A stretch of 64,000 bases of DNA from contig JAFDWZ010000018.1 in assembly GCA_018268195.1 (NCBI GenBank), forward strand, positions 1-64,000, read 5' to 3'. The notes beneath the pieces are model-generated. The model saw only the letters and a program-made list of their open reading frames with translations. It was not told where the DNA came from and ran no database searches. Of this stretch, positions 2,227 to 57,720 are shown in pieces. The position numbers and the translations under genes were made by a program. Origin of the DNA: Bacteroidota bacterium. Its GTDB lineage: Bacteria; Bacteroidota; Bacteroidia; AKYH767-A; OLB10. Position 1 is the first letter of the stretch. Every line of letters starts with the position of its first letter.

Positions 2227-2997
2227 TTAATAGCGAAGTAGAAAATCCTGCTTGCTTAAATCGGGGTCAAAAAAGACGATTCCCATCATAAACAAATCTA
2301 TAGATACTGACACTTTTGGATGTTGTCTGATATCATCCCATGCTTGTTTCATCCCTGTACTCCAGTTAATGTCATCAAAAATAAAAACACTTTGTGCATG
2401 TGCTTTTCCCAAACAATGATTGAAATAATTCATAGTAGGTTCGTAATGATGATTGCCATCAAAAAAAACAAAGTCAACCTCTGTCAATTCTGATAACACC
2501 TTGGGTAACGTATCATCAAACATTCCTTGCACTGATTCAATACGGTTGCCAAATTCTGTTTTGTCAAATTGTTTACGTGCATGTTGCAATAAAATGTCAT
2601 TACCTTCCAGCGTGATAACTTTACCTTTGGTAGCTGCAGCAAGATAGAGGGTGCTGATGCCAAGTGAAGTTCCGATTTCTATGCACACTCGTGGCTTAAA
2701 ATGTGTTGCCAGCCGATACAATAATCGGGCATAGCGTTTTCCTTTAAGCGTATTTCGCGCAATTTGTGAAATACTTTTTTCCGTTGTTCCGTCAGAGGTG
2801 TTGATGACAGGAATTTTGGTTTCGTCTTTCAGAAAATTGTTGCGAATTGTTTCTATCTCCTGAAAAACATGTTGTTTTTTGTCAGGTGAGATAACCTTTG
2901 TGTAAAGCTGGTAAACAAATGGCGAGTGAATGTAATGAGCATTATGCGAGGAAAAATAATATCCTGCATAACGCATTGCCATCAGCAGTTTATTCAT
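2227..2997 (-). CDS. Class I SAM-dependent methyltransferase
   Basis: 256 residues. The SAM-binding motif I is visible as CIEIGTSLGISTLYLA near residue 105, followed by the acidic strand-2 residue in VITLEGND and a motif IV-like VDFVFFDGNHHYEPT. This pattern resembles the Methyltransf_24 / O-methyltransferase group. The substrate cannot be told. The N-terminal ~85 residues precede the Rossmann core and look like a helical cap. Its start overlaps by 8 nt the end of the interrupted gene upstream, so they probably share a transcript. Confidence 0.8.
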   Translation of the reverse strand: MNKLLMAMRYAGYYFSSHNAHYIHSPFVYQLYTKVISPDKKQHVFQEIETIRNNFLKDETKIPVINTSDGTTEKSISQIARNTLKGKRYARLLYRLATHFKPRVCIEIGTSLGISTLYLAAATKGKVITLEGNDILLQHARKQFDKTEFGNRIESVQGMFDDTLPKVLSELTEVDFVFFDGNHHYEPTMNYFNHCLGKAHAQSVFIFDDINWSTGMKQAWDDIRQHPKVSVSIDLFMMGIVFFDPDLSKQDFLLRY

Positions 2998-4492
2998 TAA
3001 ATAAAAATTTTGCCATCAACAGTTTTTTTCTGTTCCAGCAGGGTACAACAAGTTCATCAGCACTTATCTGCCTGGCGGCAAAAGGTATCAGCATAATTCT
3101 ATCTTCGGGCTGAATAATTTCTTTGGTATCAGAAGTGCCGTTATTGTTAATCCTGAAAATAGCTACAGAATTATTTCTATCAATGCGGGTGTTGTAAATG
3201 AGGTTAATCTCGCTTTCGGTTTGCGCAATCGTGAACGAAGAGTATTTGCCAAAATCATTGGTAGAAACCTGATCTTTTCGCAACACAGCATCCCAATCTA
3301 TGCTTCCGTCCGCATTAACTGAGAGTGCCACTGCATTATTAAAATGATATTCATAGCTACGGATATAATTCTGAGTGAAATAATCGTAATAGGAGTAATC
3401 GGTTACATACGACATTTCCGTAATAAGGACAGCACCGCCATCATTACGTAAAATAATTTTTTCGATATTCAGATTTTCCATTCCCGACTTGCTCTTGTCA
3501 ATAGTCAAACCGGAAAACATACGTGCTTGGGTGCTTTCACCAATTGGCTGCCTGAATATTTTCAATGAATCATTACTAGTTGTTTTAAGAGTTGCATAAA
3601 TGATTCCTGATTAATTTGTTGTTTTATCGTTATAGAAGCCTGCCAATACCAACTGCTTATTTGTAATATCATAAGCAATGGCGCTACCGTTGAGTTCTAC
3701 CTCACTTCTGTTTACTGCATATTCCACAGCTCCCTCATTGCCATTTAATGAAACAAAAAGTTTATAGGCATCCCAGCGTTTGCGTTTCTCATTGTTTTCT
3801 TTTGAATAAAAACTTCCCTCAAGAATAAAATCACCTGCTTCTGTCAGTAGCCAGTTCTCATAGCTGAAGTTTTTTTCAGGATAAGGCACATCAAACTGAA
3901 GTTGCCGAACAGGTTGTATTTCGGTGTTGATAACAATGCAATGCAGTTTCTGCATTCCATTTTGTTTTTTTTCATTCTGAATAATACCGAAAAGATTATT
4001 TCGCTGCGAGGCTATGATTTTAATTTTATCTAAGTTGCTTGTTTTGTCAAAAACTATACTTCCCAGAGGTATGGCAGTTTCTGGTTCTTTGCCATTATCG
4101 TCAAGTACTGATGCAAATACATTTAACTTGTTTTCTTTATCGGCAAAGGCTGATTTAATTAGCACTACCTTGCCATTGATGACAGCCATGGTTTCTGTCT
4201 TTTCGTTTTCATTACCGGGATTAATTTTTTTTGACCATTTAACAGTAAGGTTATTATTATAGCAGGTTACCTGATATTTTCTAGACTTAAAACCAATTCG
4301 GTCACGGTCATTTTCAAAGGGTAGATTGCTCTGAAAAAGAAAAAATTCGTTGTCGTTATAGCCGGCAATTTTTATATAATCATAGTTATAAGCGTCAATT
4401 TCCTGCTTGGAGTAAATAACTTTCTGAGATGCAGCAAATAAGGGTATCAGCAGGAGTAAAAAAGGATAAAATATTCGATGTTGAACTGACAT
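2990..4492 (-). pseudogene. Secreted protein interrupted by an in-frame TAA
   Basis: Two same-frame reading segments (3611-4492 and 2990-3610) are separated only by one TAA codon at 3611-3613. Reading through gives a continuous ~500-residue protein: ...YNDKTTN-stop-SGIIYATLKTTSND... and on to KFLFNE. No ATG or GTG lies just after the stop, and the text on both sides has the same Asn/Lys-rich, beta-strand-like character. The ATG at 4492 is preferred because it begins a signal peptide (MSVQHRIFYPFLLLL...AASQ); a TTG upstream is inside the -7 box. Family not recognised. Either a recent nonsense mutation, a sequencing error or stop readthrough. Confidence 0.75.
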
Positions 4493-12402: not shown

Positions 12403-13059
12403 TTATTTGTTTTCCTGTAATAATAAATCAATATCAGTCAACAATCGGCTAACATCTGTTGAGTCTGTACCATCATAGTAACCTCTTAATCTTTTTTCTT
12501 TATCTACTAAAGCAAAATTCTGTGTATGAATAAAGTCGTCAGGCCCTCCATCGCCTTTGGAAGCAATGGAAAGATAGGAGGTGCGTGCCAGATCGTAAAT
12601 TTGTTTCTTATCTCCCGTAACAAAAAACCATTTTCCTGAAACTGCATGATGCATATTGGCATATTCTTTCAGTACGGCAGGAGTATCGTATTCCGGATTT
12701 ACCGAATGTGAAATAATAAGTACATTGGGGTTGTTGGCATATTTTGCAGCCACTCTTTCCATTTGTGTTGACATCACCGGGCAAATACTGCGACAGGTGG
12801 TAAAGAAAAAATCGGCCACATAAATTTTTCCGTCAAAAGTATGATTGGTAATGGTGTCGCCATTCTGGTCAATCAGGCTGAATGGTGACACATGATGTGA
12901 TGCTTTGGTTTCTTCATTGGTTGGGCCATAAATTGGTAAAGTGCGCAACGGACCATCGTTGCAGGAAGTCCATAAAAATGAAAGCGCGAGAAGAAATAAA
13001 ATGATTACCCACTCCATAGCGGGCACAGCCCATAATCGTTTGCAGGAAATACAACTCAT
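12403..13059 (-). CDS. SCO1/SenC-type copper chaperone
   Basis: 218 residues, thioredoxin-fold SCO family. The copper site is visible as TTCRSICP (Cys89 and Cys93) plus the distal His178 in FIHTQNFALVD. A membrane segment (about 15-32) ends in WTSC, so it may be a lipoprotein. If so, translation from Met15 (13017) would give a normal lipoprotein signal, while the annotated start at 13059 overlaps the stop of the YHS gene by 4 nt (ATGA) and suggests coupling. SCO proteins load copper into cytochrome oxidase CuA or act as thiol oxidoreductases. The YHS neighbour supports a copper role. Confidence 0.88.
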   Translation of the reverse strand: MSCISCKRLWAVPAMEWVIILFLLALSFLWTSCNDGPLRTLPIYGPTNEETKASHHVSPFSLIDQNGDTITNHTFDGKIYVADFFFTTCRSICPVMSTQMERVAAKYANNPNVLIISHSVNPEYDTPAVLKEYANMHHAVSGKWFFVTGDKKQIYDLARTSYLSIASKGDGGPDDFIHTQNFALVDKEKRLRGYYDGTDSTDVSRLLTDIDLLLQENK

Positions 13060-19202: not shown

Positions 19203-21752
19203 TTAATAATTGTCGTATCGGTCATTCTTGCGTGTAAGTTTCAGATCTTGCAGAATGCTTGACTTTACATTAATCTGGAAATAGTAATTGGCCTGATAGC
19301 CGAAAGGTACCCAGTTAAGTCGCATCTCCCAACAATGCAAATCACGATAAAATCCCAGTGAAGTGTATGACAATTTCTTACTCTGAAAATCATATCCCGA
19401 GTTGAAAGTAACTTTCCAGTTTTGAGTAAGTGAAACATCGCCATTAAATCCTAAAATCTGTGTGATAATACCTTTGGTCAGTCCGGGGCGTGAATAATTT
19501 ATACTGTAATTTACTGCCAGATTATAAGGAATAGTGAAGTCAACATAATCCTCGGGGTGGTCATTTATTGCTTTGAGCTGATCCGGTGTTCCTTTCAGGC
19601 TTTTTTTCTTCCCTTTATTCTGATTCAGATTGAAACTTACACTGCTGCTTGCTGAAGACAAACGTGCAAGTTTGCCGTTTGCAGACAGCAAATATTCCTT
19701 GGTACGGATTCCTGATTCATTGATATAATAAGGATCGAAAGTTCCTGATGCGGTAAGATTAATTTTATCAAATAGAGTAGTGCGGGCACTCATTCCTATT
19801 GGCGAAAGATTGAAAGAATCCACAGCCATATTATATGAGGCAGCAATGCTGAAACTCTCCAAAAGTTTTATTTTTTTCAGATTGGTAGCAGTATCAGTGT
19901 ACTGTCTAACTTTCATTTCCAGATTATTGTCTAAGCTGAAAGAAAGAATACTTGATTTCCCTTGACCGGGACCACCGTACAGCGTATTGTCGTAGATGGA
20001 ATATTTTCTGGTATTTCCAATAGAATCTACCTGAACAGTTTTATAGTAACCATATTTATTTTCAGAAAAATCTGGCCTCCATGAGTAGCTCAGGTTAGGG
20101 GTAAGCACATGCCTGAATGCGGCAATTTTCCCTTTTTTGAACTGAAAGGTTCCGTAAATACGTGTATTGAGTGAAGCCGAAGTGCTGTATTCATGAGCTG
20201 CACTAAAGGTTTTTACCGTGTCTGTTACAAGCCAGTTATTGGCAGCATCGTAATGTAGGCGATAAGTTTGCAGATACCATCTCTCGCTGAAATTTGCTGA
20301 AGGTGTGAGGTTGAAAAATTTCAGTATGCGAAAGGAAGTACTAATCGGGATATTATGTTGCATACCGTTTTTCATTTGTCTGACCGTTGAATTGGTGAAG
20401 AACACACTGTCAGGATTTTGAAGCTGATTTTGAAGTGTACTACTGTAGCCAACACCAATTTTCTCATACCAAAGAGGAGTGCCTTCCGCATCTTTTCTAC
20501 GGAAAGGATACCAGGTTGCCATGCTCATATTTACGGTAGGAGCGGTGAGGTAAACCATCCTGGTTTGGGTGTTCTGCGAGTGTGTAATAGCTGATGAAAC
20601 ATTGAACTTCTTGTTGAACAATGATGTGGAGTATGAAATGGATGAATTAAAAGTATTGGTAAGGTAGTTGGATGCTGAAGAAATATTGCGGGTGTAATAA
20701 TCATTGGATCCTGCTCTTACCGATGCTGAAAAAATTCCGTTGGGGCGTGCTTTGGCATCCTGCTGATGCGACCAGTTAATGAAAAACTCTTTTGACCTGC
20801 TGTAGTCAGGCAAATCTTTTTCACTGACTTTGATAATAGAATATAGAAAGGATAAATTTCCGGTATAATGATATCGGTTGTTATAACGTGATGCCGCTCT
20901 TACAGCCCAACTTCCAAGGGTATAAATATCGCCCGTAAGCGATAAGTCAACATGGTCGCTGATGCCGAAATAATATCCTCCGTTTTTGAAGAAAAATCCA
21001 AGAGTGTTACTTTCTCCGTAAGCCGGAAACAGTATTCCTGAACTGCGTCCTTTGGTGTTTGGGAAAAGCCCGAAAGGTATAGCTGCAGGTGTTGGCATAT
21101 CAGCAATTACCAGGTAGGCAGGTCCGGTAATAATTTTATTATTAGGAATTACTTTAAGCTTATTGGCGGCAATGTAATAATGTGGGGTGTCCAGATTACA
21201 AGTAGTGTAGCGCCCGTGGCTTATATAACTGCTCTCGTCAGCCTTCTTTACAATTTCACCATGAATATATCCTTCGCCTTGCTGTGTAGTCACATTATAA
21301 ACCTTGCCTTTTTTCGAATCGAAGTTGTAACGCATGGTGTCAGCTTTAAATTCATCACTTCCTTCCTTGAAAACGGGTTTGTCATAAATTTTCCCGCTGC
21401 TGTCACGCAGTCCTGACGAAAACACATTTTTAGAGTTCCAATCAACGGTGATGTAGGCGGCTTTTAATTCAATGTTTTCATAGTTTACCTGAGCTTTCTT
21501 ATACAGATAAACTTTTTCGTCCGAAATATCAAATTCAATGGTGTCATCAGCAGTATAATGCACTTTAGACTTTATTTCATTGCTGATTCCAGCATGAATA
21601 GAATCCGTCTTCAACGAATCGTTTTGCACGGTCAAAGTAGAATCTGTAGAGGTAACAGGCTTGTTTTGAGCATGAACAAAAAGTGATGAAAAAACGAATA
21701 CCGCTATATACATCAGGAAAACAGGCGTTAATAAGTTTTTAAAAACGGTCAT
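19203..21752 (-). CDS. lptD: LPS-assembly protein LptD, Bacteroidota type
   Basis: 849 residues. Signal peptide near residues 10-30 (VFVFSSLFVHAQ). An OstA/LptA-like beta-jellyroll follows (about 65-210: TIEFDISDEKVYLYKKAQVNYENIEL, with DKPVFKEGSDEFKADTM). Then comes a long beta-barrel with alternating Tyr/Ser-rich strands; the LptD hallmark IPFGLFPNTKGRSSGILFPAYGES is at about 225. It inserts LPS into the outer leaflet with LptE. The C-terminal barrel end RKNDRYDNY lacks a strong terminal aromatic. It diverges from the amidase-mlaD pair through overlapping promoters. Confidence 0.9.
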   Translation of the reverse strand: MTVFKNLLTPVFLMYIAVFVFSSLFVHAQNKPVTSTDSTLTVQNDSLKTDSIHAGISNEIKSKVHYTADDTIEFDISDEKVYLYKKAQVNYENIELKAAYITVDWNSKNVFSSGLRDSSGKIYDKPVFKEGSDEFKADTMRYNFDSKKGKVYNVTTQQGEGYIHGEIVKKADESSYISHGRYTTCNLDTPHYYIAANKLKVIPNNKIITGPAYLVIADMPTPAAIPFGLFPNTKGRSSGILFPAYGESNTLGFFFKNGGYYFGISDHVDLSLTGDIYTLGSWAVRAASRYNNRYHYTGNLSFLYSIIKVSEKDLPDYSRSKEFFINWSHQQDAKARPNGIFSASVRAGSNDYYTRNISSASNYLTNTFNSSISYSTSLFNKKFNVSSAITHSQNTQTRMVYLTAPTVNMSMATWYPFRRKDAEGTPLWYEKIGVGYSSTLQNQLQNPDSVFFTNSTVRQMKNGMQHNIPISTSFRILKFFNLTPSANFSERWYLQTYRLHYDAANNWLVTDTVKTFSAAHEYSTSASLNTRIYGTFQFKKGKIAAFRHVLTPNLSYSWRPDFSENKYGYYKTVQVDSIGNTRKYSIYDNTLYGGPGQGKSSILSFSLDNNLEMKVRQYTDTATNLKKIKLLESFSIAASYNMAVDSFNLSPIGMSARTTLFDKINLTASGTFDPYYINESGIRTKEYLLSANGKLARLSSASSSVSFNLNQNKGKKKSLKGTPDQLKAINDHPEDYVDFTIPYNLAVNYSINYSRPGLTKGIITQILGFNGDVSLTQNWKVTFNSGYDFQSKKLSYTSLGFYRDLHCWEMRLNWVPFGYQANYYFQINVKSSILQDLKLTRKNDRYDNY

Positions 21753-31924: not shown

Positions 31925-33457
31925 TTAATCATTGCTATGCAATTTAGGTTTAGTTCCATCAATAGGTTCAGCGCCTGAATCTCTTAAAATTGTTGTTTTC
32001 TTATTCATGCCTTGAGCACCGGGTGCCGGTACAAAACGGTTATTGGCATTAATAGAAACAATGTTCCCATTTGCATCTTTTTCATCTGCACGATTTGCTA
32101 CTATGCTCCACGAAAACTTTGCATTGGAACTTCCGTTGGCAAGTTCTTTAACTTTGAATCCATTAATAGTTTTTTGAGTTACAAAAACTCCGTTGCAATC
32201 ATCTTCGAGTTGGATAAAAACTCGTAGTGGATGTTGTGAGTCAACTAGAATATTTTTTACGAGAATAGGGTCGAGGGTTATATAGGTTTCTCCATTGCTT
32301 AATTGTCCTGAACCATAATCCTGAAATAAAATTTCAGGTGCTTCAGGACATACCATAATACGATACTGGTCATTCAAATCTTTCACAAAAGTTCCAGCGG
32401 AACCTGTGCCGGTTACCTTATAATTTGTTCCACTGATTCTGGCACCCACATAAGCGAAAGCACTGTTATTGCAATAGAAATACCCTCCAGCTGACGGTGT
32501 AGCACTGTTAATTGTTGAATCTTTACCAACAAATCCGCATACTCCATTTTTATTTCCTGAAAAAGCTCCTCCTTGCCCGTTGTTTAATGCATATATGCCA
32601 CCGTTTCCGGAAGCACCTAATACTCCTATGCCTGTTGTTGAGCTATTAAAACCTACTACACCACTACTAGAAAAATTAAGGCTATTTCCTCCCCATGCGG
32701 CCTGCCCGTAAATACCATCTCCGGCACCTGCTGTTGTTTGTGTATTATATCCTCTAACACCATCGCCAGTTGTGGATGCTTGTCCCTGAACTCCTGCTTG
32801 AACAGAGGTAAATCCAATAACGCCAATACCTCCTGAGGCATTGGTTGCTTGCCCACGCACACCAGCGCCTGTACCGCTGTTAATACCTGCAACCCCATTC
32901 CCCAATCCAGAGTTTATGCCTAATACACCATGAGAGTTAATATTGGTAGGCTCTGCATTTTCGCCATAAACACCGGCTCCAATTTGGCCTACATAACCGT
33001 TTACTGCATAATTTCCTAATGAGTTGGTTGCACCTACTAATCCACTCCCGAAAACAGTAAACACATCACCTGTAAGAGGCGTAGCCCGATTAATTAGTAT
33101 TTGACCGGTACTCATTATTCGCATCCTTTCATTGGCAGCGGCATTACCGTTAGTTTTAAATATTACAGGTCGCGAATTCAATGTTCCCAGAAAGTTTTTT
33201 GTCGAATCAATGGAACTATTACCCAAAGTAAGCCATGCCACAGAATCCAAAAGTCCTGAGGTAGTAACATTGAGCGTTCCTGTAGGATCGGCCATTACCA
33301 GCCTGTTGCCTACACCGGTAAGAGTGGAGGAACGGATATTGCCTATGACATCTAATTTCTGTATTGGAGTAGATGTGCCAATTCCAACATTTTGAGCTTC
33401 GGCAATCATGCCGGTCAATAAGAGGATTAATAATGAAATCTTTTTTCTTGTAAACAT
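31925..33457 (-). CDS. Secreted fibre-like protein with glycine-rich repeats
   Basis: 510 residues from the ATG at 33457, which begins a signal peptide (MFTRKKISLLILLLTGMIAEAQ); earlier starts add non-signal residues and lie over a -7 box. It opens with NVGIGTSTPIQKLDV, the VGIGTxxP motif common at the N-terminus of Bacteroidota fibre-like and S74 proteins. The central ~170 residues repeat GVxG units (GVLGINSG, GVAGINSG, GVRGQA, GVIGF, GVQGQA, GVRGY), suggesting a beta-solenoid or trimeric shaft. The C-terminal ~180 residues are a mixed globular domain; no S74 chaperone is seen. Function unknown, likely surface fibre. Confidence 0.78.
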   Translation of the reverse strand: MFTRKKISLLILLLTGMIAEAQNVGIGTSTPIQKLDVIGNIRSSTLTGVGNRLVMADPTGTLNVTTSGLLDSVAWLTLGNSSIDSTKNFLGTLNSRPVIFKTNGNAAANERMRIMSTGQILINRATPLTGDVFTVFGSGLVGATNSLGNYAVNGYVGQIGAGVYGENAEPTNINSHGVLGINSGLGNGVAGINSGTGAGVRGQATNASGGIGVIGFTSVQAGVQGQASTTGDGVRGYNTQTTAGAGDGIYGQAAWGGNSLNFSSSGVVGFNSSTTGIGVLGASGNGGIYALNNGQGGAFSGNKNGVCGFVGKDSTINSATPSAGGYFYCNNSAFAYVGARISGTNYKVTGTGSAGTFVKDLNDQYRIMVCPEAPEILFQDYGSGQLSNGETYITLDPILVKNILVDSQHPLRVFIQLEDDCNGVFVTQKTINGFKVKELANGSSNAKFSWSIVANRADEKDANGNIVSINANNRFVPAPGAQGMNKKTTILRDSGAEPIDGTKPKLHSND

Positions 33458-33486
33458 TTTAAAATTTATTATCATATTAAATATTT

Positions 33487-33494
33487 CGAAATTA
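33487..33494 (-). promoter_or_regulatory. -7 element TAATTTCG
   Basis: Minus-strand TAATTTCG, one mismatch to TAnnTTTG, 29 nt before the start of the glycine-repeat fibre protein. Confidence 0.4.
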
Positions 33495-33561
33495 CGAATT
33501 AAATTTATAGATACTGATTGAATAGACATTGAAATGAATATTAATACTACATTCTCTTTAA

Positions 33562-34671
33562 TTATTTAACTAATTTTTCCAATTGGTTCACTTTCGTTTT
33601 TAACTGTTCTATCTGTGCCTGTTGTTCTTTTATTGCTTCTACAAGAACCGGAATTACATCAGCATAGGAAACTGCTTTTACACTATATGAACCACTTCTA
33701 CCTTCTTTTTCTGTAGTCACCGGATCTATGTCGTAAGGTATTGCTGTATTTCTCACAGCAGAAGGAAGAACTTTTTCCAATTCCTGAGCAATAAAACCTG
33801 TTTGAGTTGTTGCACTTAAATTTAAGGGTTTGTATTCTTCTGTGCGATAGTTATAAAAAACTCCACGCATTTTCTGAACCATTTGTAATGCATTAGGAAT
33901 GGTCTTGATATTTGTTTTTAATTTTTCATCTGAAACATTTAACCAGTTAGTTAAACCTCCTGCCCAACCACTGCCATAAACAGCCCAGCCAATAGCCGTT
34001 GGTTGATTACCTCCTACAAATGCACCGTAAACGCCAATCCCTGCTGTGCTGTTAGAGTGTCCTCTTACACCTTCAGCACCGGCTAAAGTGGGAGCTGTAT
34101 TTGTATTGTTCAAAGCTATACCTATCACAGCAGAAGCATTATAGCCTGTTCCGCTGAAATTTGTTGCACCCATGAGCACACGGTTGTTATTACTCGCACT
34201 TGAATTTTGAAATCGTGCAGGTGCATCGCTGGTCAATAAATTGTCCCATTTAAATTGCCAGTCATTGATTAAAGTACGCGGTATAGCATGCAGCCATGTA
34301 GTTACCGGATTGTTGGTCCAAAGACCAATGCTGCCGGTATTCTTTATGGTTATTTGTTCTGAATTATTCGTTCTGAATCTTAAATCAATATTGTCGGTTG
34401 TTCCCAAAAAATCAAGAGTACTGCTGAGTCCGGCATTGCCTCTGGTAAGCCAAACATCTGATGGAGTACCCGGGGTGGTAGTAAGGTCACCAAAATTGTT
34501 GACATAAACATTTCGGGTGGCTACTCCTGATAATCCGTCAATACGAATTGTCTGACCGGAACCGGCAACATGTAATTTCTGTAAAGGTGCTGATGTGCCA
34601 ATACCGACATTCTGCGCATGGGAGCTTAAGTACGGTAAAATTAAAAAAAGTAGAGATAAAAACTTTTTCAT
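33562..34671 (-). CDS. Fibre-like protein with S74 intramolecular chaperone domain
   Basis: 369 residues from ATG 34671, which starts the signal peptide MKKFLSLLFLILPYLSSHAQ; 38 residues further upstream in frame look like spacer. VGIGTSAP follows, as in the neighbouring gene. From about 243 comes the endosialidase chaperone (Peptidase_S74): NVSDEKLKTNIKTI, with Ser247 and Lys252 in the spacing of the catalytic dyad, then TGFIAQELEKVLPSAV. The end is a coiled coil (VEAIKEQQAQIEQLKTKVNQLEKL). In phage tailspikes this domain trimerises the fibre and cuts itself off before the Ser. Here it is on an exported bacterial protein. Confidence 0.88.
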   Translation of the reverse strand: MKKFLSLLFLILPYLSSHAQNVGIGTSAPLQKLHVAGSGQTIRIDGLSGVATRNVYVNNFGDLTTTPGTPSDVWLTRGNAGLSSTLDFLGTTDNIDLRFRTNNSEQITIKNTGSIGLWTNNPVTTWLHAIPRTLINDWQFKWDNLLTSDAPARFQNSSASNNNRVLMGATNFSGTGYNASAVIGIALNNTNTAPTLAGAEGVRGHSNSTAGIGVYGAFVGGNQPTAIGWAVYGSGWAGGLTNWLNVSDEKLKTNIKTIPNALQMVQKMRGVFYNYRTEEYKPLNLSATTQTGFIAQELEKVLPSAVRNTAIPYDIDPVTTEKEGRSGSYSVKAVSYADVIPVLVEAIKEQQAQIEQLKTKVNQLEKLVK

Positions 34672-34695
34672 ATATTTTAATTTTATTCGTTTTTT

Positions 34696-34703
34696 CAAAA
34701 TTA
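34696..34703 (-). promoter_or_regulatory. -7 element TAATTTTG
   Basis: Minus-strand TAATTTTG, full match to TAnnTTTG, 24 nt before the S74 fibre gene start. Confidence 0.5.
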
Positions 34704-34825
34704 TACATATTAATCGTAAAAAAGAACTATTTCGTAGAAATTTGTCGAAAGTGAACATTTGTAATGATTTTGTCATAATGGACATCAGATGAGGTTTCTC
34801 ACCCTTTGAATAGGGTAGGAAAGAA

Positions 34826-40329: not shown

Positions 40330-41013
40330 TTAAATGGTTATAGATTCTCCGATATTCATTAATAATAATTCTTTTCCTGCATTGGTAAATTTTTCTTTTG
40401 CCTCTTGATGGTCAATTTTGATAGGAGGGAAGGTGTCGTAATGCATACCAATAACCTTGTCGCAATTTACAAACTCAGAGGCAATAATTGCATTATCAAT
40501 CCCCATAGTGAAATTACTTCCTATCGGTAACATGCAGATGTCAATTCGCTTGTAATCACCAATCAGTTTCATGTCATAGGTAAGAGCTGTGTCACCGGAG
40601 TAATAAACGTTCCGGTGAGAAGTTTCGATTAAAAATCCCATTGCACTGCCGCCATACGAGCCATCAGGCATGGAACTGCTGTGAATGGCATTTACACACT
40701 TCAGCTTACCGAAATCGAAAAAATAATGTCCGCCAATATTCATAGCATGCACACGGTTGATACCCTTTTCCTGCACCCAGTTACAAATTTCGAAGTTGCT
40801 GACAACAAGCGCATTGGTTTGATGTGCCAGAGCAACTGCATCGGCCGTATGATCTTCATGTCCATGAGATATTAGGATATAATCAGCTTTAATGTTCTTT
40901 AGCTGTATATCTTTTGCCAGCGGATTTCCGGTTATAAACGGGTCAAAAACAATGGTTTTGCCATTAACTTCAACGGCAAAACATGCATGTCCGTAATATG
41001 TAATCTTCATCAC
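40330..41013 (-). CDS. UPF0173 metal-dependent hydrolase
   Basis: 227 residues of the small metallo-beta-lactamase UPF0173/YtkL-like group: ITYYGHACFAVEVNGKTIVFDPFITGNPL at the N-terminus, the metal motif SHGHEDHTAD (HxHxDH) and YYSGDTALTYDM, followed by GMHYDTFPPI near the end. Substrate unknown. First gene of the parAB run, with a clear promoter 27 nt upstream. Confidence 0.9.
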   Translation of the reverse strand: MMKITYYGHACFAVEVNGKTIVFDPFITGNPLAKDIQLKNIKADYILISHGHEDHTADAVALAHQTNALVVSNFEICNWVQEKGINRVHAMNIGGHYFFDFGKLKCVNAIHSSSMPDGSYGGSAMGFLIETSHRNVYYSGDTALTYDMKLIGDYKRIDICMLPIGSNFTMGIDNAIIASEFVNCDKVIGMHYDTFPPIKIDHQEAKEKFTNAGKELLLMNIGESITI

Positions 41014-45370: not shown

Positions 45371-45376
45371 TAGCCT

Positions 45377-56895: not shown

Positions 56896-57720
56896 ATGCT
56901 TTTTAATACAAAGAAAACTCTCATCATCGGTCATCGCGGCTGCCGTGGCTTAATGCCGGAAAATACCGTACCTTCATTCATAAAAGCTATACAATTACAA
57001 GTTGATGCAATAGAACTCGATGTGGTTATTACTCACGACAAAAAAGTACTCATTTCGCATGAACCTTGGCTCAATCATCAAATTTGCTATGATGAAAACG
57101 GTAATGAACTGACAGAAGCACAGGCAGAGAAAGTTAACTTGTATCTATTGGATTATGAGAAAATAAAAAAGTTCGATTGTGGAACAAAAGCTCATCCTGA
57201 ATTTGCGGAGCAACAGAAATTGAAAGCCGAAAAACCTTTGCTTGACGAAATGATTATTCAGGTAAAAAATTACTGTAAGCAACATCAACTCAATATGCCG
57301 TTTTTTTGTATTGAGATAAAAAGTGATGAAACACTGTATGGAATCTCGCAGCCTGAACCTGATGAATTTGTAGCTCTCGTGATGCAGGTTTTAAAGCAAC
57401 ATCTCAACGCCTCACAGTATTTGATACAGTCGTTCGATTTGAATATTCTGAAAGCAGTAGATCAAAAATTTCCTGAAGTGGTTTTATCTGCATTGAATGA
57501 AACGATTGAGGATGCTTCAGCGTTTTTTACTAAGTTGGGATTTCATACACCATGCTATAGTCCTTATTTCGGATTTATTAATGATGAGATGATGCAATAC
57601 TGTAAAGAAAGAAAAATGGAAGTATTGGCATGGACAGTAAATAATGAATCCGAAGCAAGAAAACTTAAAGCAATAGGTGTAAAGGGAATTATTACCGATT
57701 ATCCTGACAGGATTGGGTAG
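56896..57720 (+). CDS. Glycerophosphodiester phosphodiesterase
   Basis: 274 residues. TIM-barrel GDPD signature: IIGHRGCRGLMPENTVPSF (catalytic His and the HRG..PENT motif), AIELDVVITHDKKVLISHEPWLN, FCIEIKSDE and LAWTVNNESEARKLKAIGVKGIITDYPD. It hydrolyses glycerophosphodiesters to glycerol-3-phosphate and an alcohol. No signal peptide. The 178-nt space to the convergent exporter permease holds no clear terminator. Confidence 0.93.
   Translation: MLFNTKKTLIIGHRGCRGLMPENTVPSFIKAIQLQVDAIELDVVITHDKKVLISHEPWLNHQICYDENGNELTEAQAEKVNLYLLDYEKIKKFDCGTKAHPEFAEQQKLKAEKPLLDEMIIQVKNYCKQHQLNMPFFCIEIKSDETLYGISQPEPDEFVALVMQVLKQHLNASQYLIQSFDLNILKAVDQKFPEVVLSALNETIEDASAFFTKLGFHTPCYSPYFGFINDEMMQYCKERKMEVLAWTVNNESEARKLKAIGVKGIITDYPDRIG

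What the first reader, a model, noticed from the sequence alone, without database searches (positions are those of the whole stretch)
2990..4492. Secreted protein split by a single in-frame TAA
The reading frames on both sides of TAA 3611-3613 are in the same frame, with no restart codon nearby. Removing the stop yields one ~500-residue protein preceded by a signal peptide. This is a nonsense mutation, a base error (for example GAA to TAA) or a readthrough case in a gene that otherwise shows no decay.
Basis: seen in the sequence. Interest (0 to 1): 0.5.

Follow-up and report, generated by a model that had tools for sequence, protein, structure and literature searches.

The report
Recently broken ordinary bacterial gene
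A gene for an uncharacterised, probably exported bacterial protein carries one stop signal in its middle that none of the relatives aligned here has, most likely a recent knock-out mutation or a sequence error rather than a new way of reading genes.

Summary
On the minus strand a frame of 293 codons (4492-3614) ends at TAA 3613-3611 and continues in the same frame for 206 codons (3610-2993) to a second TAA. One copy was found in the own draft genome. Relatives encode one protein of about 500 residues: 0 of 29 aligned homologs have a stop in that column, and the 3 genus mates share one amino acid there. The part behind the stop is under strong purifying selection, without sign of decay. Among 54 ORFs of G001 matched over the first 57.7 kb of the window, this is the only gene truly interrupted, and no frameshift was flagged. 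The stop stands in the context UAA-U, described as the most efficient bacterial terminator (PMC5289835, abstract and passages). RF1 and RF2 genes are present, and an incomplete tRNA list holds no UAA-reading tRNA. Best reading: a recent nonsense mutation. A consensus base error is the main rival and cannot be excluded without reads. Readthrough and a working two-part gene are unlikely. Ordinary; low interest.

The parts
3614..4492 (-). First part of the gene: 293 codons from ATG 4492, N-terminus signal-peptide-like by eye
   Evidence: matched in 44 of 99 other genomes searched
3611..3613 (-). In-frame TAA, followed by T (UAA-U context); a sense codon in the 29 aligned homologs that reach it, or a neighbouring one-residue length difference
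2993..3610 (-). Second part of the same gene, 206 codons, the more conserved part against genus mates; no own signal-peptide-like start seen
   Evidence: matched in 63 of 99 other genomes searched
2990..2992 (-). Normal stop codon of the gene (TAA)
2227..2997 (-). Downstream ORF (256 aa, methyltransferase-like by eye) whose ATG overlaps the end of the gene by 8 nt; same overlap in G001 and G002, 1 nt in G003
   Evidence: no NCBIfam match at E <= 0.001

Best explanation
A recent nonsense mutation has cut a gene, found once in the draft genome, for an uncharacterised, probably exported and mostly beta Bacteroidota protein of about 500 residues. Translation starts normally, stops after 293 codons and yields a fragment without the more conserved part; the second part is most likely not made. 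Because the downstream gene starts inside the end of this one, the stop may also lower its translation. Shown: position, unity of the gene in aligned relatives, one copy found, absence of decay. Inferred: that the base is real, that it is young, that the product is non-functional, and the effect on the next gene.
For: One open frame crosses the site in 29 of 29 homologs aligned; these are the loci returned for 29 of the 45 matches outside the own genome. The 3 genus mates carry the same amino acid in the column. One match each in the own genome for the whole gene and for each part. Constraint continues behind the stop: NG86 dN/dS against G001 and G002 is 0.028 and 0.034 in the second part, 0.060 and 0.050 in the first; the whole gene ranks 19th lowest of 54 matched ORFs for pN/pS. 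On the own branch the second part shows 5 non-synonymous and 31 synonymous changes by parsimony against about 109 non-synonymous expected if the whole branch were neutral; by a hand estimate at most about a tenth of the branch could have been neutral. The upstream box TACTTTTG is kept in 4 of 4 genus members (its reading as a Bacteroidota -7 box is recalled). Isolated event: no other true internal stop and no flagged frameshift among 54 G001 ORFs matched.
Against: No reads were available, so a base error fits these results equally well. Lack of decay is also what retained function (readthrough) predicts. No second genome of this species was at hand, so polymorphism could not be tested. Synonymous sites are near saturation (dS 1.6-1.8 to G001 and G002, undefined between window and G003), so ratios and the age bound are rough.
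Confidence: 0.6

Rival explanations
1. The stop is a consensus base error in a draft assembly; the cells have an intact gene.
For: One isolated stop in an otherwise intact and constrained gene. 211 of 4482 possible single substitutions in the G001 homolog would create a stop, so a few nonsense errors in a 3-Mb draft of 71 contigs would not surprise (judgement). Draft relatives do show apparent lesions: G002 has 4 window ORFs split between frames and G003 has 1.
Against: The own window looks clean: no flagged frameshift and no other true internal stop among 54 G001 ORFs matched, so its consensus is not generally poor.
Confidence: 0.32
2. The TAA is read through, or decoded by a suppressor tRNA, and a full-length protein is made at some level.
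For: Strong constraint on both sides of the stop; the stop sits where homologs vary in residue and by one residue in length.
Against: The stop is absent in the 29 aligned homologs, 3 of 3 genus mates included. UAA is cited as having the least readthrough and UAAU is called the most efficient terminator in bacteria (PMC5289835, abstract and passages seen). RF1 and RF2 are encoded. None of the tRNA genes found has a tta anticodon, but that list lacks Ala, Ile, Thr, Tyr and Val tRNAs and so is incomplete.
Confidence: 0.05
3. A newly split gene: both parts are made separately and still work together.
For: Candidate starts TTG 3565 and ATG 3520 exist behind the stop.
Against: None of the 29 aligned homologs is split; a second part started there would have no signal-peptide-like start and so would be expected to stay in the cytoplasm (inference); in a low-confidence model of the G001 homolog the site is a turn between two strands (mean pLDDT 49.8).
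Confidence: 0.03

Closest known systems
Nonsense pseudogenes / premature-stop alleles of bacterial genes
   Same: One in-frame stop in a gene that is intact in its genus mates; one copy found; no further lesion seen, as in a young pseudogene
   Different: Nothing found; whether it is fixed, polymorphic or an error is open
Stop-codon readthrough genes in bacteria
   Same: One stop between two constrained in-frame parts
   Different: UAA-U context, stop not shared by the 29 aligned relatives, no suppressor tRNA seen in an incomplete list
Delta-60 repeat (TIGR02608) / DUF5122 (PF17164) beta-propeller repeats
   Same: Faint similarity over about 20 residues of the second part
   Different: Far below both curated cut-offs (15.4 against 76.5 bits; 10.6 against 27 bits)

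Membership tests
Young nonsense pseudogene | Homologs carry one uninterrupted gene over the site | tested here: met
   29 of 29 aligned homologs, out of 45 matches outside the own genome
Young nonsense pseudogene | The lesion is really present in the cells | not testable with these tools
   No reads and no second genome of the species at hand
Young nonsense pseudogene | Relaxed constraint behind the stop (expected only once some time has passed) | tested here: inconclusive
   No relaxation seen; expected of a very young lesion, of an error and of readthrough alike
Programmed stop-codon readthrough | The stop is conserved among relatives | tested here: not met
   0 of 29 aligned homologs
Programmed stop-codon readthrough | Leaky stop or leaky context | tested here: not met
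   UAA-U set against passages of PMC5289835; no expression data
Stop codon reassignment | Many in-frame TAA codons in conserved genes, and a matching tRNA | tested here: not met
   One gene of 54 matched ORFs over the first 57.7 kb of the window; no tta anticodon among the tRNAs found, list incomplete
Delta-60 repeat / DUF5122 beta-propeller | Score above the curated cut-off | tested here: not met
   in Pfam at E <= 0.1 no family matched more than 1 of the 25 homologs scanned (25 of 29)

The most novel reading that the evidence does not exclude
A UAA-U codon in a constrained gene for an exported protein is efficiently read as sense in this species, so that the strongest bacterial terminator signal is bypassed at one site.
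Probability: 0.03. Interest if true: 0.6.

Novelty: new member of a known kind. Interest (0 to 1): 0.08.

Why it matters
It matters little beyond annotation: the two ORFs should be treated as one interrupted gene of a Bacteroidota protein family without a curated model in the libraries searched, and not as two genes or as evidence for recoding.

Tried and rejected
Other interrupted genes as a sign of recoding or of a poor assembly: two further stop hits in the window (TGA 13349-13347 minus, TAG 45371-45373 plus) were rejected, because both lie in N-terminal over-extensions ahead of the likely true starts (judged from the alignments).

The reverse comparison, 61 window ORFs against the fetched stretches, matched 57, 55 and 18 in G001, G002 and G003. 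Five hits with a stop appeared in G001: 4 near the N-terminus of the window ORF and 1 in an ORF antisense to other genes; no frame split there. G002 showed 4 frame splits and G003 1, which I did not follow up.

One TGA inside a match in G015 was rejected as an internal stop: it is the end of its ORF of 492 codons. A short open frame in G019 and one in G063 lie next to contig ends.

Family assignment: no Pfam or NCBIfam match above a cut-off for either part, no solved relative by profile at E <= 1, a structure model too poor for a fold search (mean pLDDT 49.8, three sequences), so none was run. A literature search on premature stops in metagenome-assembled genomes found 0 papers with all four terms; one on readthrough listed 8 of 55 papers, of which one was looked into.

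Mended: scope of the window comparison, the G003 overlap, how relatives were named, and the lesions in G002 and G003.

Full report
What is there. The finding lies on the minus strand. ATG 4492 opens a frame of 293 codons that ends at TAA 3613-3611; the same frame goes on for 206 codons to TAA 2992-2990. The N-terminus looks like a signal peptide by eye. Behind the stop the first ATG/GTG/TTG codons in frame are TTG 3565 and ATG 3520. The next ORF (2997-2227, minus) starts 5 nt before the gene's final stop codon, an 8-nt overlap that G001 and G002 share; in G003 the overlap is 1 nt.

Relatives. The window lies in a genome of 3,005,802 bases in 71 contigs with one match for the gene. In a set of 100 genomes including the own one, the first part was matched in 45 and the second in 64, that is 44 and 63 of the 99 others. 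The 29 loci returned for the best of the 45 matches outside the own genome were aligned: none has a stop in the column; the 3 genus mates share one amino acid there, and more distant ones vary. One of the 29 (L022) runs off its contig at the far end, behind the site. In the aligned relatives it is one gene, not two.

State of the gene. Nei-Gojobori dN/dS of the second part against G001 and G002 is 0.028 and 0.034, of the first part 0.060 and 0.050, with overlapping bootstrap ranges. Synonymous sites are near saturation (dS 1.6-1.8; undefined between window and G003), so the ratios are rough. On the own branch, by parsimony with G003 as outgroup, the second part has 5 non-synonymous and 31 synonymous changes and the first 12 and 33; the parts do not differ significantly (Fisher p 0.18). 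A fully neutral branch would give about 109 non-synonymous changes in the second part. So the stop is young, false, or without effect. The whole gene ranks 19th lowest of 54 for pN/pS in the window.

Is it part of a pattern? ORFs of at least 80 codons from 60 kb each of G001 and G002 and 40 kb of G003 were matched to the window: 54 of 56, 53 of 59 and 16 of 35 matched. The G001 matches reach window base 57,714, so the last 6 kb were not covered by it. No frame split was flagged in the window. Three genes had an internal stop; two have it ahead of the likely true start, leaving this gene alone. For G001, 50 of the 54 best matches cover at least 95% of the query; one of the other four is cut by the window's edge. 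Stop codon reassignment is thereby very unlikely. In the reverse direction G001 shows no true lesion by my reading, G002 4 frame splits and G003 1, so draft relatives of this kind do carry apparent lesions.

Readthrough. The stop is UAA followed by U. A comparative study of 25 bacterial species calls UAAU the most efficient termination signal and cites readthrough as least at UAA (PMC5289835; abstract and passages seen). RF1 and RF2 genes are present. The tRNA genes read in 27 loci include no tta anticodon; Ala, Ile, Thr, Tyr and Val tRNAs are missing from that list, and 150 of 179 candidates were scored, so it is incomplete.

What the protein is. No curated family matches above cut-off, only single weak hits among the 25 of 29 homologs scanned, and no solved relative was found by profile at E <= 1. 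A model of the intact G001 homolog from three sequences is of low confidence (mean pLDDT 49.8) and mostly beta; the site falls in a turn between two strands. I take it as an uncharacterised, probably exported, mostly beta Bacteroidota protein (inference).

Verdict. A single, isolated stop, not seen in relatives, in a constrained gene: a recent nonsense mutation (0.6) or a consensus error (0.32), with readthrough (0.05) and a working split gene (0.03) as unlikely rivals. The weights between the first two are judgement, since no reads were at hand.

Noticed in passing
G000:C2:61230-62261 (locus L102): The prfB match holds one TGA, as expected for the well-known prfB programmed frameshift (recalled, not examined).
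   Followed up: no
window 2227-2997, minus: Start codon overlaps the end of the interrupted gene by 8 nt, in G001 and G002 too; the stop upstream might lower its translation.
   Followed up: partly
window 32048-33499, minus: Fastest-evolving matched ORF of the window against G001 (39% identity, pN/pS 0.49); part of it resembles a neighbouring stretch near 34327-34686.
   Followed up: no
G002 stretches L068-L070 against window ORFs at 12403-13059, 19203-21752, 33562-34785, 40330-41013: Four window ORFs are split between frames in the draft genome G002 (OLB10): possible assembly errors or pseudogenes there.
   Followed up: no
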